A stretch of DNA of 64,000 bases from Pseudomonadales bacterium (GTDB taxonomy: Bacteria > Pseudomonadota > Gammaproteobacteria > Pseudomonadales > Azotimanducaceae): positions 186,001 through 250,000 of the forward strand of contig JAJECH010000018.1 of NCBI GenBank assembly GCA_022822135.1, given 5' to 3'. This document shows positions 42,014 through 50,200 of the stretch, one piece after another; position 1 is the stretch's first letter, and each line of letters begins with the position of its first letter. The notes under the pieces were generated by a model. The model did not search any database. It was not told the DNA's origin and saw only the letters and a program-made list of their open reading frames with translations. A program made the translations under genes and the position numbers.

Positions 42014-43060
42014 CTAGCTTGGCTTACGCGCTACAAAGCAATACAGCGTTGTAAATACACCTTCCTTTCCACCATTTACGTATGCGTCAGCTGTCCGATC
42101 CATAAAGCGCAATACTCTATGAGAATCACGTGGGAACAACGCTATCAATTCAGAAAGACGCACAACCCACAAAATCGCTGCGCGACCCATCGGCGTTCGG
42201 CGGAAGAAATTCCCTATCGAGCCGTATCGACTCTCCATTGGCCCATACCACCGTGTACTGGGGTCTTCTGTATCGGCAAGATCATTTGCCTCTAGGACTT
42301 CGAAGCCGACCGCCTCAAGTGCGTCATTCACGTCACTAAATGTCGCGATATCGTGAAGCGCAATCCCGCGCATCAATTCCTGCTTCAGCCACTCATGACG
42401 AGCGTTAGCAGGGTCGAAAGAATTAGTTAAGCACATTTCCTGACCCCATAAACGAGCGCCAGGCTTTAACACGCGAAAAATCTCGGCAAATGCACGTCGC
42501 TTGTCTTGTGCGTGACACGTGGACTCGATCGCATATCCTGCGTCAAACGTATTCTCATCCAGTGTTCTCATGTTCATGAAATCACATTTCACGTATTCCG
42601 CGAGATGGTCTAGTCCAGCATCTACGTTCTTCAACTTCGCTTGAGATAGTTGGTACTCATTGTTATTAATGCAATAAACCTTGGCGTTGGTTTCACGCGC
42701 CACACGGCGCATGGGTCCACCCACACCACAACCAACATCGATCACTTTCATGGAGTCTCTCAACTCAAGCTTCTTAATCATTAGACGTTCGTGACGTATG
42801 ACCGCATCTTCCAATGTCTCATCTTTTCTCAACGGAGCGAAATGAAGGCAATCCCCCCAACCGTATTCCATGAGTTCATGGCACAAGTCGTAATAGATGT
42901 TGACGATCTCGGAGTGATCGTAGGACACATCAGCGTTTACGTCACTTGAGCGTCCATCGATCTCGCTTTCAAGACTCGCGAGTCGGTTGTCAACCGACCA
43001 CTTCTTATACGCACTGCGCATTCGACGAGACATACTTAAGAATTTGAAATCGCGCGACAT
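42014..43060 (-). CDS. Sterol 24-C-methyltransferase-like SAM-dependent methyltransferase
   Basis: 348 residues from the ATG at 43060; a TTG 12 codons earlier is possible but lacks a ribosome site. Motifs of the Erg6/SMT family appear in order: YGWGDCLHFAP (66-76), SAM-binding IDVGCGVGGP (107-116), INNNEYQLSQAK (131-142), AIESTCHAQDKR (177-188), and a C-terminal region (FFRRTPMGRAAIL then GGKEGVFTTLYCFVARKP) matching the sterol-methyltransferase C-terminal domain. SMTs methylate C-24 of the sterol side chain in fungi, plants and some bacteria. No squalene epoxidase or oxidosqualene cyclase is in the window, so the substrate could be an acquired sterol or another triterpenoid. It is a monocistronic gene with about 630 bp upstream. 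Confidence 0.85.
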   Translation of the reverse strand: MSRDFKFLSMSRRMRSAYKKWSVDNRLASLESEIDGRSSDVNADVSYDHSEIVNIYYDLCHELMEYGWGDCLHFAPLRKDETLEDAVIRHERLMIKKLELRDSMKVIDVGCGVGGPMRRVARETNAKVYCINNNEYQLSQAKLKNVDAGLDHLAEYVKCDFMNMRTLDENTFDAGYAIESTCHAQDKRRAFAEIFRVLKPGARLWGQEMCLTNSFDPANARHEWLKQELMRGIALHDIATFSDVNDALEAVGFEVLEANDLADTEDPSTRWYGPMESRYGSIGNFFRRTPMGRAAILWVVRLSELIALFPRDSHRVLRFMDRTADAYVNGGKEGVFTTLYCFVARKPS

Positions 43061-43689
43061 TTGCCTCACTCGAAACTGGTCGTACTCAAATGACAAAAAG
43101 GTCAGAGACGACCGACTAAAACTAACTAACGCAAATGGATTTTAGCAGCGCCAAAGTGAGATACCTAGGACCCTCTAAATTGCTATGGTAGCTGACCAAA
43201 GTCTGGCGACATTTGCGAAAGCGATAGAAACGAGGTTACTGTGACGTGCTTTTCGCCTTTGTAGCGTATGCGCACGAACCGAAAAGCACTGCTTTGATGG
43301 CTGATTTCTCTCCGTTAGGCAAGAATCACGATCGGTTAAAACGTGCGCTTAGTCCCTTCAGCGACTTCAGCAACTTGATTCAACTCGGCGTACAACGACA
43401 TGATTAGCTTGATCTCGAGTACATTCTTAACGAAATTTGTGTCATGCTGAAATTTACCTGCATTGCGCTTGCATTAACCGAGGAAACCTCACCCGTTCAT
43501 TGGATTACTAAAACCATTCGCGATAGTTAATTAACGATTGAACGACTGAGTCTATTCAGACCTGTTATTTCATTCACATTTCTGTAGAACGTTATCTTCA
43601 CGACTGTCTCGACGTTCGAAGCTCAGGAAAGACCCTTGTACTATGGCATGAACATTTAGAAACTATGTATAGTTCGAGTAGGAGATCCC
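43061..43689. other. Intergenic region between the SMT-like gene and the RND operon
   Basis: About 630 bp with divergent genes on both sides. I find no tRNA, terminator or convincing small gene. It probably carries promoters for both neighbours. AGGAG at 43680-43684 is the ribosome site of the membrane-fusion gene. Confidence 0.5.
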
Positions 43690-44808
43690 GTGAGACTCGG
43701 TATGTTTAACCTTTCGTCTGACTTAGCATGGCGAGCGACAGCCACTGCAACCGTGTTTGGTCTGGCTTTGATCTGGCTACTATCCGGCGTGCTAGCTGCC
43801 GACGAAACGCAAATTCAGCCCAGTCTCGCTCAGCTGAACGACGCAGCCGACGAACGAGCGAACGCCCGAGCGCCAGTCAAAGTGCGTGCACGGCGCAGTG
43901 TTGCGGCGGAAAAAGCGCGAGTATTGGCACTCAATGGCAGGACCGAAGTTAAGTACGTTGCGTCTGTGCAATCGGAAACGACCGGTCAAGTCGTTAAGCG
44001 CAATGTCGACGACGGCGCAACGGTTAACAGAGGCGATCCAATCTGCACGGTTGAAGTCAATGACCGCGATGCACGAGTGACGGCGGCAAATGACGCCGTG
44101 ACACTAGCGCGACTTGAACACGAAGGAGCGCTAAGGCTACGCGAGAACGACTATCAACGTGAATCCGAGGTAGTCGCGGCGAAAGCAAACCTCAGTGCGA
44201 TGCAGCATGCATTGGTGTTAGCCGAAGAAGCACTTGCCAATACGGTCGTTCGTGCACCGGTCTCCGGTTTCGTCGAACGTGTTCACGCCACGGTCGGCGA
44301 TTTTTTTGTCCCAGGTTCTCCATGTGCGACCATCCTTGATCTCGACCCCATTTATGCTGTTGTTCACGTTCCTGAACAGTTTGTAGATCAAATCGCCCTA
44401 GGAACCGTTGTTAACGCATCACTTGCGACCGGGCGTAGCGCAACTGGCGAAGTTTCATTCGTTGGAAAACAGGCTGCTAGCAGCTCTCGCACGTTCCGAG
44501 TCGAGATTGCATTGCCGAATAAGCAGTACGAAATCAGGTCCGGCGTGACTGCGGAGGTCGGATTGCCATTGAAGACCCACTTAGCACATCAGGTGTCGTC
44601 CGCATTGTTAGTGCTAGGCGACACTGGTACGCTTGGAATCCACACAGTCAATAACTCCGTGGTCGAATTTCATGAGGTAGACATTGTTACCGAGGACGGC
44701 GACGGGACTTGGGTGGGCGGTTTGCCGATGGAGGTTGTCATCATCACAGTGGGGCAAGATCTTGTTTCACCCGGTCAGCGTGTTGATGTTCAGTGGGTTT
44801 CCGGATGA
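43690..44808 (+). CDS. RND efflux periplasmic adaptor (HlyD/MFP family)
   Basis: 372 residues from a GTG with a good AGGAG. One N-terminal membrane/signal segment (about 15-36), a lipoyl half-motif (VASVQSETTGQVVKRNVDDG), a coiled-coil hairpin (about 130-190), the second lipoyl half (TVVRAPVSGFVERVHATVGD) and a beta-barrel/membrane-proximal end. It links an RND pump to an outer-membrane channel. No channel gene is in the neighbourhood. It is followed 47 bp later by the RND permease, so the two form an operon. Confidence 0.93.
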   Translation: MRLGMFNLSSDLAWRATATATVFGLALIWLLSGVLAADETQIQPSLAQLNDAADERANARAPVKVRARRSVAAEKARVLALNGRTEVKYVASVQSETTGQVVKRNVDDGATVNRGDPICTVEVNDRDARVTAANDAVTLARLEHEGALRLRENDYQRESEVVAAKANLSAMQHALVLAEEALANTVVRAPVSGFVERVHATVGDFFVPGSPCATILDLDPIYAVVHVPEQFVDQIALGTVVNASLATGRSATGEVSFVGKQAASSSRTFRVEIALPNKQYEIRSGVTAEVGLPLKTHLAHQVSSALLVLGDTGTLGIHTVNNSVVEFHEVDIVTEDGDGTWVGGLPMEVVIITVGQDLVSPGQRVDVQWVSG

Positions 44809-48139: not shown

Positions 48140-50200
48140 TTAAGCTACCGTAGGTAACGGCTTGCGAAGGCTTTTCACCCTGAATTTGAAACGCTTGTCA
48201 GGACTGAATTTGGGCAATGGGCTCAACTTCAGCTGATAGTCTTTTGGCACGATCTCAAGATCGCAATGATGCGCGACTAACAAGAGATTCGCTACCAAGA
48301 TCAGTTCGGTGAATCGCGAGCCTAGGCACGTATGGGTCCCTAAGCCGAAAGGATAGAAAGCGCCCCGTTTTCGATGCTCCTCTCGTTCCGGTCCAAACCG
48401 GTCCGGATCGAATTGGTCCGCGTTTTCAAAGTGTTCGTCTAAGTACTGAGTCGCCGTGAAAGCAACTAAAACATTACTCCGCGCAGGGACGAGGTAATCA
48501 TCGACCTCAAATTCGTTCATCGCCTTCCTGTTATGGACTGGAATAACAGGATGAAGGCGCATCACCTCCATAAGGAAACGATGCGTGAAATCGATGCGAT
48601 CCATCGTGACTTCATCTTTCGTCGGGTCCCCACCTTCGAACAGTGCATCAGCTTCAGCGATGATCTTCTCGTGAAAGTCAGGGTGTTTCAGCATTTCGTA
48701 CAGTGCGAAACTCATCTGGCTTCCCAGATAGTGCCCTGCGATTAAAGTTGCGAGGAACGCAAACTCGAGATCAGTTTCAGGCAGAAACTGAGGATCCGAT
48801 TTATGAAGCGTCAACAGATCATCGACAAAATCGCGAGGCTTACCCGCGCGTTCCTCTGATGTATGGCTTTCATGAATTTGACGATAAACTTCAATTACGT
48901 CGCTTAAGTACCGTTTCATACGCGGTGTCTTGAGCATGAATTTCGGCAACACATGCATCACGTGAATCTTCAAAGCACGGAATTCATACTTCAACAGACC
49001 GTCGAGTACGCTAATCGGCGGGTCGATACTCGTTGTGAGCTGAGCAATCTGACAACCGGTAAACCGCTGACACTCCATCTCAACAGGTAGCGCCTTACCG
49101 TCTTGCCACATTCCGATGCGCTCCCGACCAATTCGGAACAAATCATCCAGCCGATCCTCCACCGCAGCTCTCGCGGTACCCGCTCGATAGATCTTGCGCA
49201 TTCGAAAATGGTCAGCACCATCCATGCTCGCGATCGATCTTGCAGTACCCCATGCTGTTTGAAAATCTTCAAGATAATCGCGGGTTCTTAAATAAAGCCT
49301 ACCGCGGCGAGCCACCCACTGGTTCATGTCTGCGCCAGCCAACACAACTGAACCTTTTCCAGATAAACCGAGACGGAACACGGGACCGTACTCTTCGTGC
49401 ATCTCCGAGATAAATCGGACAAGGTCCTTCTTTCTTAGCGATTTCGATTTCAGGTAGGAGCTCAGTTTGATTTGCGGTACCGGGAGGCGCTTCGGACGCG
49501 TCGGTTGAGACGAGGCAGGGTCTGAATCTCCCACAGCGGACCTGATTGCCTGCCCAAACAAATCCATGCTCGCGAGCAGTTGAATTCGTTCCTGTGCCAT
49601 CTCAAATTCGTCAGCATCAAGCATCGACCGGAAACCGTCGCACACCAATAGCAGACCAATGAGCGTAACATCGTGTGGGTCCGGTATTTCTTCGTCAAAT
49701 AGCGCGCGGCGGATACGTGCCTTAACTTCCTCCTGCTGTTCTAGCCCAGGACCGACATATTGACCCGTACGCAAGACCTTATTGCTCAGTTGCCAATAGC
49801 CTCCGGTATCGTGTACAAGAATCCCCATATTGACGAGTCGCTGTAACACAAATTCGATAAATACATCCGCATTTGGCGCGAAGTACTCAACCCAATATTG
49901 AGTCGTACGAGGGATAGGTTCGTACGAGATGATTTCAAGCGCAGGATCAAGAATCGCGTCACCGATGGGAGCGGCGTCCAAGACATGAAGATGATCTAAG
50001 TCAGCGTCAATGCGGTTCCTGAACGACAAATCAAGAATGACTGCTCCCGCAAATCCGCACCACATCCGCCAATCGGAAGTCGGTGCCGCGACGAACCCGA
50101 GATCGTCCTTCAACATTAACAGAACCAATTCTTCAGCTATCGTAAGCCGATGAAACTCGGAGGATTCTTTCGGTTCTGCCTCAAGTACTTCGTCTGTCAT
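48140..50200 (-). CDS. Cytochrome P450 with N-terminal GPP34 (GOLPH3-like) domain
   Basis: 686 residues from the ATG at 50200, which overlaps the Rieske gene stop (ATGA); a TTG 10 codons earlier is an alternative. Residues ~18-225 match the GPP34/GOLPH3 fold: LTIAEELVLLMLKDDLGF, GFAGAVILDLSFRNRID, DAAPIGDAILDPALE and RIRRALFDEEIPDPHDV align in order with human GOLPH3, a PI4P-binding Golgi protein. Residues ~240-680 are a P450: I-helix IAGHYLGS (487-494), K-helix EVMR (545-548), and the heme loop YPFGLGTHTCLGSRF with Cys625. The I-helix lacks the usual Thr; AGHxxxS recalls CYP51. I infer membrane-lipid recruitment of a monooxygenase. The fusion is in one frame and coupled to a Rieske oxygenase. 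Confidence 0.9.
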   Translation of the reverse strand: MTDEVLEAEPKESSEFHRLTIAEELVLLMLKDDLGFVAAPTSDWRMWCGFAGAVILDLSFRNRIDADLDHLHVLDAAPIGDAILDPALEIISYEPIPRTTQYWVEYFAPNADVFIEFVLQRLVNMGILVHDTGGYWQLSNKVLRTGQYVGPGLEQQEEVKARIRRALFDEEIPDPHDVTLIGLLLVCDGFRSMLDADEFEMAQERIQLLASMDLFGQAIRSAVGDSDPASSQPTRPKRLPVPQIKLSSYLKSKSLRKKDLVRFISEMHEEYGPVFRLGLSGKGSVVLAGADMNQWVARRGRLYLRTRDYLEDFQTAWGTARSIASMDGADHFRMRKIYRAGTARAAVEDRLDDLFRIGRERIGMWQDGKALPVEMECQRFTGCQIAQLTTSIDPPISVLDGLLKYEFRALKIHVMHVLPKFMLKTPRMKRYLSDVIEVYRQIHESHTSEERAGKPRDFVDDLLTLHKSDPQFLPETDLEFAFLATLIAGHYLGSQMSFALYEMLKHPDFHEKIIAEADALFEGGDPTKDEVTMDRIDFTHRFLMEVMRLHPVIPVHNRKAMNEFEVDDYLVPARSNVLVAFTATQYLDEHFENADQFDPDRFGPEREEHRKRGAFYPFGLGTHTCLGSRFTELILVANLLLVAHHCDLEIVPKDYQLKLSPLPKFSPDKRFKFRVKSLRKPLPTVA

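What the first reader, a model, noticed from the sequence alone, without database searches (positions are those of the whole stretch)
48140..50200. GOLPH3-like (GPP34) domain fused to a cytochrome P450
Seen: one frame of 686 codons whose first ~210 residues match GPP34/GOLPH3 blocks in order and whose last ~440 residues carry all main P450 motifs. Known: eukaryotic GOLPH3/Vps74 binds PI4P at the Golgi; GPP34 proteins also exist in bacteria, mostly actinobacteria, with unclear roles. I do not know of a described GPP34-P450 protein. Inference: the GPP34 domain tethers the monooxygenase to an anionic or sterol-rich membrane, presenting a lipid substrate.
Basis: partly seen in the sequence, partly recalled or inferred. 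Interest (0 to 1): 0.85.

Follow-up and report, generated by a model that had tools for sequence, protein, structure and literature searches.

The report
Sterol-linked GOLPH3–P450 fusion in sponge symbionts
A bacterial enzyme that joins a Golgi-type membrane-binding domain to an unusual cytochrome P450 is shared between distantly related bacteria, many of them living in sponges, and often sits beside genes that modify and probably export sterols.

Summary
In detail: one 686-codon gene (48140-50200, minus strand) encodes GPP34 (93 bits) plus cytochrome P450 (157 bits). It is no assembly error. All 18 held genomes of the genus carry it, and so do 79 named loci (76 unbroken) labelled with seven phyla, many of them sponge-symbiont MAGs. 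The fused GPP34 domains form one side of a branch: one fusion, then horizontal spread.

In 206 genomes of the family, SMT occurs in 36 of 46 with the fusion and 2 of 160 without. Twenty genomes have fusion and SMT but no cyclase hit, suggesting imported sterol.

Two surprises: the P450 I-helix acid is Tyr in 78 of 78 readable copies, the next Thr mostly Leu; and GOLPH3's PI4P-binding arginines are absent.

Best reading: a membrane-tethered, chemically atypical P450 that tailors sterols, often with a Rieske enzyme, SMT and exporter. Substrate, reaction and membrane binding are inferred; structure prediction never finished. Sterol clusters in sponge bacteria are published; my searches found no paper on this fusion.

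The parts
48140..50200 (-). GPP34-cytochrome P450 fusion gene, 686 codons from ATG 50200
49529..50140 (-). GPP34 (GOLPH3-like) domain, about residues 21-224
   Evidence: Pfam PF05719 93 bits; GOLPH3 profile match
48188..49429 (-). cytochrome P450 domain, about residues 258-671
   Evidence: Pfam PF00067 156.7 bits; extent from matches to solved P450s
48719..48739 (-). I-helix motif AGHYLGS (residues 488-494): Tyr491 replaces the acid/His, Leu492 replaces the Thr
48557..48568 (-). ExxR motif (E545-R548)
48320..48349 (-). haem-binding FGLGTHTCLG with Cys625
   Evidence: Cys in 77 of 80 rows; the other 3 are the interrupted copies L119, L129, L141
50197..51240 (-). Rieske non-haem iron oxygenase of the KshA_C type; its stop overlaps the fusion's ATG (ATGA)
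   Evidence: Pfam Rieske 67 bits and KshA_C 49 bits; CxH...CxxH and DxxH...H present
42014..43096 (-). sterol C-24 methyltransferase homologue (Sterol_MT_C)
   Evidence: Pfam PF08498 52.9 bits; SAM motif VIDVGCGVG
43690..44808 (+). RND periplasmic adaptor (HlyD/MFP)
   Evidence: Pfam and NCBIfam RND_mfp 124.5 bits
44856..48074 (+). RND inner-membrane pump (ACR_tran), convergent with the fusion gene
   Evidence: Pfam 496.7 bits

Best explanation
The gene encodes a soluble haem-thiolate P450 docked to the inner membrane by an N-terminal GPP34 domain. It oxidatively tailors (or rearranges) a sterol: one made in the cell where a sterol cluster is present, or taken from the host where it is not. 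In the window it overlaps, and is probably co-transcribed with, a KshA-type Rieske oxygenase; in many members a sterol C-24 methyltransferase is also linked; the product is probably moved out by the linked tripartite RND pump (diderms) or MMPL transporter (Chloroflexota, Actinomycetota). Shown: the fusion, one origin with cross-phylum spread, the recurrent linkage, the altered I-helix, the loss of the PI4P-site arginines. Inferred: sterol as substrate, membrane docking, co-transcription, the reaction, export.
For: Domains and motifs. ATGA overlap with a Rieske oxygenase that keeps its metal-binding motifs. Neighbours of 79 named loci labelled with seven phyla: Rieske 39, SMT 26, RND 47, MFP 36, OMF 24, MMPL 7; SMT or Rieske 51; any exporter part 61; the background is 2 Rieske genes of this kind above 200 bits in the 3.75-Mb own genome. 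Family of 206 genomes: SMT in 36 of 46 with the fusion, 2 of 160 without (p 1.2e-28; by genus 4 of 6 against 0 of 31, p 2.3e-4); 22 of the 36 have both within 10 kb; OSC-type cyclase (sorted from SHC-type by me, by score) 17 of 46 against 0 of 160. In G005, G009 and G011 the fusion-SMT pair lies beside SQE/OSC and a second P450, in G005 and G011 also a second SMT. In Binatota records a homologue of the L057 oxidoreductase (labelled SdmB by me) is near the fusion in L072, L075 and L129, of its SdmA-like Rieske in L075 and L129, and SQE-OSC in L129. The own genome has a separate P450 with AGQHT beside ERG24 and SQE-OSC, so this P450 probably does another job.
Against: 28 of 79 loci have neither SMT nor Rieske nearby, and 6 of 79 none of the listed genes (many contigs are short). 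9 of 46 genomes with the fusion have neither SMT nor OSC. The best NCBIfam names for the P450 are sesquiterpene oxidases, far below cut-off, and the best single PDB hit of the window protein is an uncharacterised P450, 7wzl, just ahead of the CYP51s. The Rieske's nearest solved relatives are SxtDIOX and SxtT. RND pumps are common (recalled) and two separate pump clusters occur. Genomes in one family are not independent. No search for a ferredoxin or reductase partner was made. No structure and no biochemistry.
Confidence: 0.6

Rival explanations
1. Same architecture, but the substrate is another hydrophobic host or bacterial lipid (terpenoid, polyketide, fatty acid or glycolipid), and linkage to SMT and Rieske reflects a general lipid-tailoring island.
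For: Weak best hits of the P450 to terpene oxidases; 28 of 79 loci without SMT or Rieske; a KshA_C Rieske alone does not prove a steroid.
Against: SMT is by family a sterol enzyme and co-occurs with the fusion far above chance; OSC-type cyclases occur only in genomes with the fusion within this family; CYP51s lead the solved relatives of the family profile.
Confidence: 0.22
2. A catabolic module: P450 and KshA-type Rieske begin breakdown of host sterols for carbon.
For: KshA_C similarity; genomes with the fusion but no cyclase hit.
Against: SMT, a biosynthetic methyltransferase, and efflux pumps are neighbours. Steroid-ring degradation genes were not searched for.
Confidence: 0.1
3. The P450 half is no longer an oxygenase: a haem lyase, isomerase or sterol-binding scaffold, as suggested by the Tyr-Leu I-helix, with the Rieske enzyme doing the oxidation.
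For: Tyr491 in 78 of 78 readable rows, Thr at 492 in only 13 of 79; three paralogues and the P450-only relative L063 keep AG-L-E/D-T (the other P450-only relative, L062, gave no clear motif).
Against: Cys, ExxR and haem loop are kept; some P450s without the Thr still oxygenate with substrate help (recalled, e.g. P450eryF).
Confidence: 0.25
4. GPP34 is a protein-docking domain that recruits the P450 to the pump or the Rieske/SMT enzymes rather than to lipid.
For: PI4P arginines lost, R171 position acidic; eukaryotic GOLPH3 binds enzyme tails as well as lipid (passages of PMC13408441).
Against: Hairpin region with conserved Phe/Tyr-Trp kept.
Confidence: 0.3

Closest known systems
GOLPH3/Vps74 (GPP34, PF05719)
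   Same: Fold family by HMM over the whole domain; hairpin stretch aligned with a conserved aromatic pair
   Different: PI4P-site R90 and R171 not kept and no Arg/Lys seen at R174; fused to an enzyme; bacterial
CYP51 sterol 14-demethylases (incl. the CYP51-ferredoxin fusion of Methylococcus, recalled)
   Same: Top solved relatives of the family profile; sterol gene context
   Different: I-helix His/acid-Thr replaced by Tyr-Leu in most copies; the genome has a separate CYP51-like gene in its msb-type cluster; N-terminal GPP34
msb cluster of a Melophlus sponge gammaproteobacterium (PMC7074536) and Ircinia clusters of steroid genes (PMC9531527)
   Same: G000 contig C26 (L057) has the msb genes apart from the SMT: NAD(P) oxidoreductase, Rieske, ERG24-type reductase, P450, epoxidase-cyclase protein; horizontal transfer among many phyla is reported for the Ircinia clusters
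   Different: The passages seen name no GPP34 domain and no second P450; the module here is separate, with its own Rieske and SMT, and also occurs without a cyclase
Bacterial SMTs of sponge symbionts (PMC10070321)
   Same: Same enzyme class, sponge symbionts, sterol clusters with sdmA/sdmB
   Different: That paper's main text has no P450 or Rieske; SMT here is linked to the fusion
BstA sterol transporter (RND/MMPL, PMC10942540)
   Same: RND-superfamily pump next to sterol genes
   Different: Here AcrB-type with MFP and OMF in Proteobacteria/Acidobacteriota; MMPL only in Chloroflexota, Actinomycetota and one unassigned record; transport untested

Membership tests
GPP34 / GOLPH3 | Full-length PF05719 match above the curated cut-off | tested here: met
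   93.0 bits against 29.1, profile 1-199 of 201; GOLPH3 in PDB E 1.4e-13
GPP34 / GOLPH3 | PI4P-binding W81, R90, R171, R174 | tested here: not met
   Residues from passages of PMC13408441; of 79 readable rows the R90 position is Ala 68, Val 10, Ile 1 and the R171 position Asp/Glu 77, Ser 2; at the R174 position the residues listed (76 of 80 rows) include no Arg or Lys. W81 alignment ambiguous
GPP34 / GOLPH3 | Membrane-inserting beta-hairpin (190-201) | tested here: inconclusive
   Aligned stretch kept, Phe/Tyr 79 and Trp 75 of 79; insertion not tested
GPP34 / GOLPH3 | Predicted structure like GOLPH3 | not tested
   AlphaFold job unfinished
cytochrome P450 | PF00067 match, axial Cys, ExxR, PERF-type motif | tested here: met
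cytochrome P450 (canonical monooxygenase) | I-helix acid/alcohol pair (A/G)Gx(D/E/H)T (recalled) | tested here: not met
   Tyr at the acid position 78 of 78 readable; at the next position Leu 53, Thr 13 of 79; alignment to CYP51
CYP51 | CYP51-type AG(H/Q)HT I-helix | tested here: not met
   AGHYLGS here; AGHHTSS in the solved CYP51; a separate P450 with AGQHT lies beside SQE-OSC and ERG24, itself called CYP51-like from context only
CYP51 | Sterol C-14 demethylation | not testable with these tools
   no biochemistry
KshA-type Rieske oxygenase (neighbour) | Rieske + KshA_C domains, 2Fe-2S and mononuclear iron ligands | tested here: met
   not the NCBIfam SdmA equivalog (42.8 bits against 600)
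Sterol methyltransferase (neighbour) | Sterol_MT_C above cut-off plus SAM fold | tested here: met
   52.9 bits against 21.7; activity not testable here

The most novel reading that the evidence does not exclude
A previously undescribed, horizontally shared sterol-modification-and-export module typical of sponge symbionts: a GPP34-anchored P450 with a non-canonical Tyr I-helix carries out a new sterol reaction (not ordinary acid/Thr-assisted hydroxylation) on bacterial or host sterols, and the product is delivered to the sponge, helping to explain the unusual sterols of demosponges.
Probability: 0.3. Interest if true: 0.95.

Novelty: new variant of a known kind. Interest (0 to 1): 0.8.

Why it matters
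It gives a bacterial GPP34 domain a concrete, testable job (holding an enzyme at the membrane). It exposes a P450 family whose O2-activation residues are replaced. It adds an unrecognised, transferable tailoring/export step to sterol metabolism of sponge symbionts, where the bacterial share in unusual sponge sterols, used as molecular fossils of early animals, is disputed (PMC10070321, PMC9531527). That 20 genomes of one family carry fusion and SMT without a cyclase hit suggests bacteria reworking host sterols, which isotope feeding could test directly.

Tried and rejected
Assembly or frameshift artefact: rejected. CYP51 orthologue: not supported (I-helix; a separate CYP51-like gene). PI4P recognition as in GOLPH3: not supported. 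Hopanoid substrate: in G000 the only cyclase-domain hit is the SQE-OSC protein; the strong SHC-type hits (over 400 bits) lie in genera without the fusion (g5, g49). SQE-OSC fusion as a new finding: dropped, an epoxidase-cyclase protein is described for the msb cluster (passage). Gene carried on known plasmids: 403 plasmid records match, none over 80% of the query; the ten listed cover the P450 only. Literature: 'GPP34 + cytochrome P450' (3 papers, insect work), 'GPP34 + bacteria' (25 of 49 listed, mostly the insecticidal name Gpp34; one Streptomyces paper, PMC12402492, not opened), 'GOLPH3/bacterial homolog/Vps74/PI4P/prokaryot' (15 of 36 listed), 'Golgi phosphoprotein 3 + cytochrome P450 + Actinobacteria' (none), 'sponge symbiont/P450/sterol/Rieske' (20 of 146 listed) and a sponge sterol search showed no description of the fusion; only open PMC papers were searched and most listed papers were not opened. 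The search (three Candidatus names of MAGs) found nothing. Latescibacterota records L073 and L121 (4-6 kb contigs nested among Binatota/Acidobacteriota copies) look mis-binned and were left out of the phylum count. Sponge origin: one jk18 bin is named in the text of PMC9531527, the other jk18 bins (18 of 79 in all) go by prefix; one title says lac_sponge; COS/RHO/APA (21) fit host names in PMC8163846 by initials only; the rest is recalled or unknown, so exclusivity to sponges is not shown. Only the best 79 of 345 relatives were kept.

Full report
OBSERVATION. The gene lies on the minus strand, 48140-50200, 686 codons from ATG; its start overlaps the stop of the upstream Rieske gene as ATGA. 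Pfam finds GPP34 (93.0 bits, nearly the whole profile) and P450 (156.7 bits), both far above cut-off. The fusion is old and selected: all 18 held genomes of the genus have it full length, the other 17 at 37-87% identity to the window copy, and so do G023 and G029 of other genera. Three genus members (G003, G007, G014) also hold a second copy, 31-33% identical. Against L066, L067 and L069 dN is 0.055-0.132 in the two domains, with dS of 2 or more or saturated.

SPREAD. The genome-contig scan found 345 relatives and kept the best 79. They match both domains at 40-88% identity (best segment) and their records are labelled Pseudomonadota, Acidobacteriota, Chloroflexota, Actinomycetota, Binatota, Rhodothermota and Gemmatimonadota (the last one record only), besides two doubtful Latescibacterota and one unassigned; seven are Tree-of-Life-style records, among them a 5.1-Mb Terriglobia and a 3.4-Mb Dehalococcoidia chromosome (L120, L137). 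76 of 79 are uninterrupted through both domains. On a quick tree (SH-aLRT support only, 4 copies left out) the phylum label changes at least 9 times with the Latescibacterota and unassigned rows dropped, and Acidobacteriota copies lie in separate places among gammaproteobacterial ones, so horizontal transfer is the simplest account. The GPP34 domains of 34 P450-fused proteins form one side of a branch against 19 others not fused to a P450 (two of these rows are the same protein; support 94/84, 97% of bootstrap trees): one fusion event. Of 398 genomes drawn evenly from the window's phylum, only the window's own has the full fusion at E 1e-60; one other has a P450 alone. In plasmids no record covers 80% of the query. 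Sponge origin: a jk18 bin is named as an Ircinia bin in PMC9531527 (passage) and 18 loci share that prefix; one title says sponge; 21 more carry prefixes that fit host species of PMC8163846 (passages: the prefixes themselves are not in that text). Exclusivity to sponges is not shown.

NEIGHBOURHOOD. In the window the fusion overlaps a Rieske oxygenase with both metal-binding motifs, faces a convergent RND pump with its adaptor, and lies about 5 kb from a sterol C-24 methyltransferase (SMT). Among the 79 loci, within at most 10 kb and often truncated contigs: Rieske 39, SMT 26, RND 47, adaptor 36, outer-membrane factor 24, a FAD amine-oxidase-fold protein 16, MMPL transporter 7 (4 of 6 Chloroflexota, 2 of 4 Actinomycetota, 1 unassigned). 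51 have SMT or Rieske, 61 some exporter part, 6 none of these. On the tree SMT and Rieske change at least 14 and 22 times, so the association was rebuilt or lost often rather than inherited once; truncated contigs inflate those counts. The own genome has two Rieske genes of this kind above 200 bits, so I put chance proximity at about 1%.

STEROL LINK. Of 206 genomes of the family, 46 carry the fusion by my reading (G067, G212, G217 and G219 only truncated or split over contigs). SMT occurs in 36 of these 46 and in 2 of the other 160 (64 and 71% complete), p 1.2e-28; by genus 4 of 6 against 0 of 31, p 2.3e-4; the SMT search rings in 0 of 14 control genomes. 22 of the 36 have fusion and SMT within 10 kb, eight of them within 200 bases. 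Oxidosqualene-cyclase-type proteins (told from SHC-type by me, by score) occur in 17 of 46 and 0 of 160. The own genome holds a de novo cluster elsewhere (L057: epimerase-type oxidoreductase, SdmA-like Rieske at 399 bits against a cut-off of 600, ERG24-type reductase, P450 with AGQHT, epoxidase-cyclase protein), the published msb set apart from its SMT (PMC7074536, passages). In G005, G009 and G011 the fusion-SMT pair lies beside SQE/OSC and a second P450, in two of them also a second SMT. Twenty genomes have fusion and SMT but no cyclase hit, 17 of them at least 90% complete and at most 5% contaminated: unless the gene was missed in binning, these would have to use sterol from outside. This is why I place the P450 in sterol tailoring, not core synthesis. 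Against it, 9 of the 46 have neither SMT nor OSC.

THE P450. The family profile's top three solved relatives are CYP51; for the window protein alone a putative P450 (7wzl) comes first and CYP51s follow. The haem Cys and ExxR are kept. The I-helix is not canonical: where CYP51 has A-G-H-H-T, this family has A-[GSA]-x-Y-[L/T/V/M/C/A]. Tyr is in 78 of 78 readable rows; the following residue is Leu in 53 and Thr in 13 of 79. The three second-copy paralogues and the P450-only relative L063 keep A-G-L-E/D-T (L062 gave no clear motif), so the change probably arose within the fused family. The acid/Thr pair helps split O2 in most P450s (recalled), so either the substrate supplies the missing hydroxyl or the chemistry differs. 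I do not know which.

THE GPP34 DOMAIN. GOLPH3 uses W81, R90, R171, R174 for PI4P and a 190-201 hairpin for insertion (passages of PMC13408441). In the profile alignment R90 is Ala in 68, Val in 10 and Ile in 1 of 79 readable rows; R171 is Asp or Glu in 77; the R174 position shows no Arg or Lys among the residues listed (76 of 80 rows); the hairpin stretch keeps Phe/Tyr in 79 and Trp in 75. So a membrane-facing role is plausible, GOLPH3-type PI4P recognition is not.

WHAT IS KNOWN AND NEW. Sterol gene clusters with horizontal transfer in sponge bacteria (PMC9531527: abstract and passages), functional bacterial SMTs (PMC10070321: abstract, section 7, passages), the epoxidase-cyclase protein (PMC7074536: passages) and an RND/MMPL sterol transporter in Methylococcus (PMC10942540: passages) are published. 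I found no description of a GPP34-P450 protein in the searches named under Tried and rejected; only open PMC papers were covered and most listed papers were not opened. I therefore rate it a new variant of a known kind: a P450 fusion with a new partner domain, a changed active-site motif and a new gene neighbourhood.

LIMITS. No structure was obtained (job unfinished). Redox partners and steroid-degradation genes were not searched for. Family-level counts are not phylogenetically independent; loci are the best 79 of 345; neighbour calls rest on mechanical ORFs and BLAST at 1e-8 (1e-12 for clusters). Substrate, reaction and export are inferences.

Noticed in passing
L057:7878-11231 (G000 contig C26): Squalene epoxidase and oxidosqualene cyclase in one 1117-aa frame inside an msb-type sterol cluster; an epoxidase-cyclase protein is already described for a Melophlus symbiont (PMC7074536, passage).
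   Followed up: yes
L054:9177-11210, L055:8875-10878, L056:9579-11609: Second GPP34-P450 copies in G014, G007 and G003 keep the canonical AGLET I-helix; the neighbours scanned in L054 and L055 are unrelated to sterols: a sister group with possibly ordinary P450 chemistry.
   Followed up: partly
L060:8965-10635: In G023 a 556-aa protein has GPP34 at its C-terminal end (residues 342-542) behind about 340 residues without any Pfam match at E 1e-4.
   Followed up: no
L130:12059-13507, L115:20547-21905 and 14 other loci: A FAD amine-oxidase-fold protein lies near the fusion (median distance 92 bases) in 16 of 79 loci, in none of 45 Gammaproteobacteria; a further module member of unknown role.
   Followed up: partly
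L140:12223-14700: The MMPL transporter beside the fusion in an unassigned record (family also in Chloroflexota/Actinomycetota) also matches Pfam Sterol-sensing (66.6 bits) and Patched.
   Followed up: partly
L079, L080, L099, L122, L134; G060 contig C38: A second fusion-family gene in the same locus, in some cases next door.
   Followed up: no
G000:C33:9977-10639 (L059): All 18 genus members also carry a GPP34 protein without P450 (G012 only a partial one); in G000 it lies beside a metallo-beta-lactamase-fold and an HgmA-like gene; its role is unknown.
   Followed up: partly
L073, L121: Short contigs labelled Latescibacterota carry copies nearly identical to Binatota or close to Acidobacteriota ones: likely mis-binning.
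   Followed up: partly
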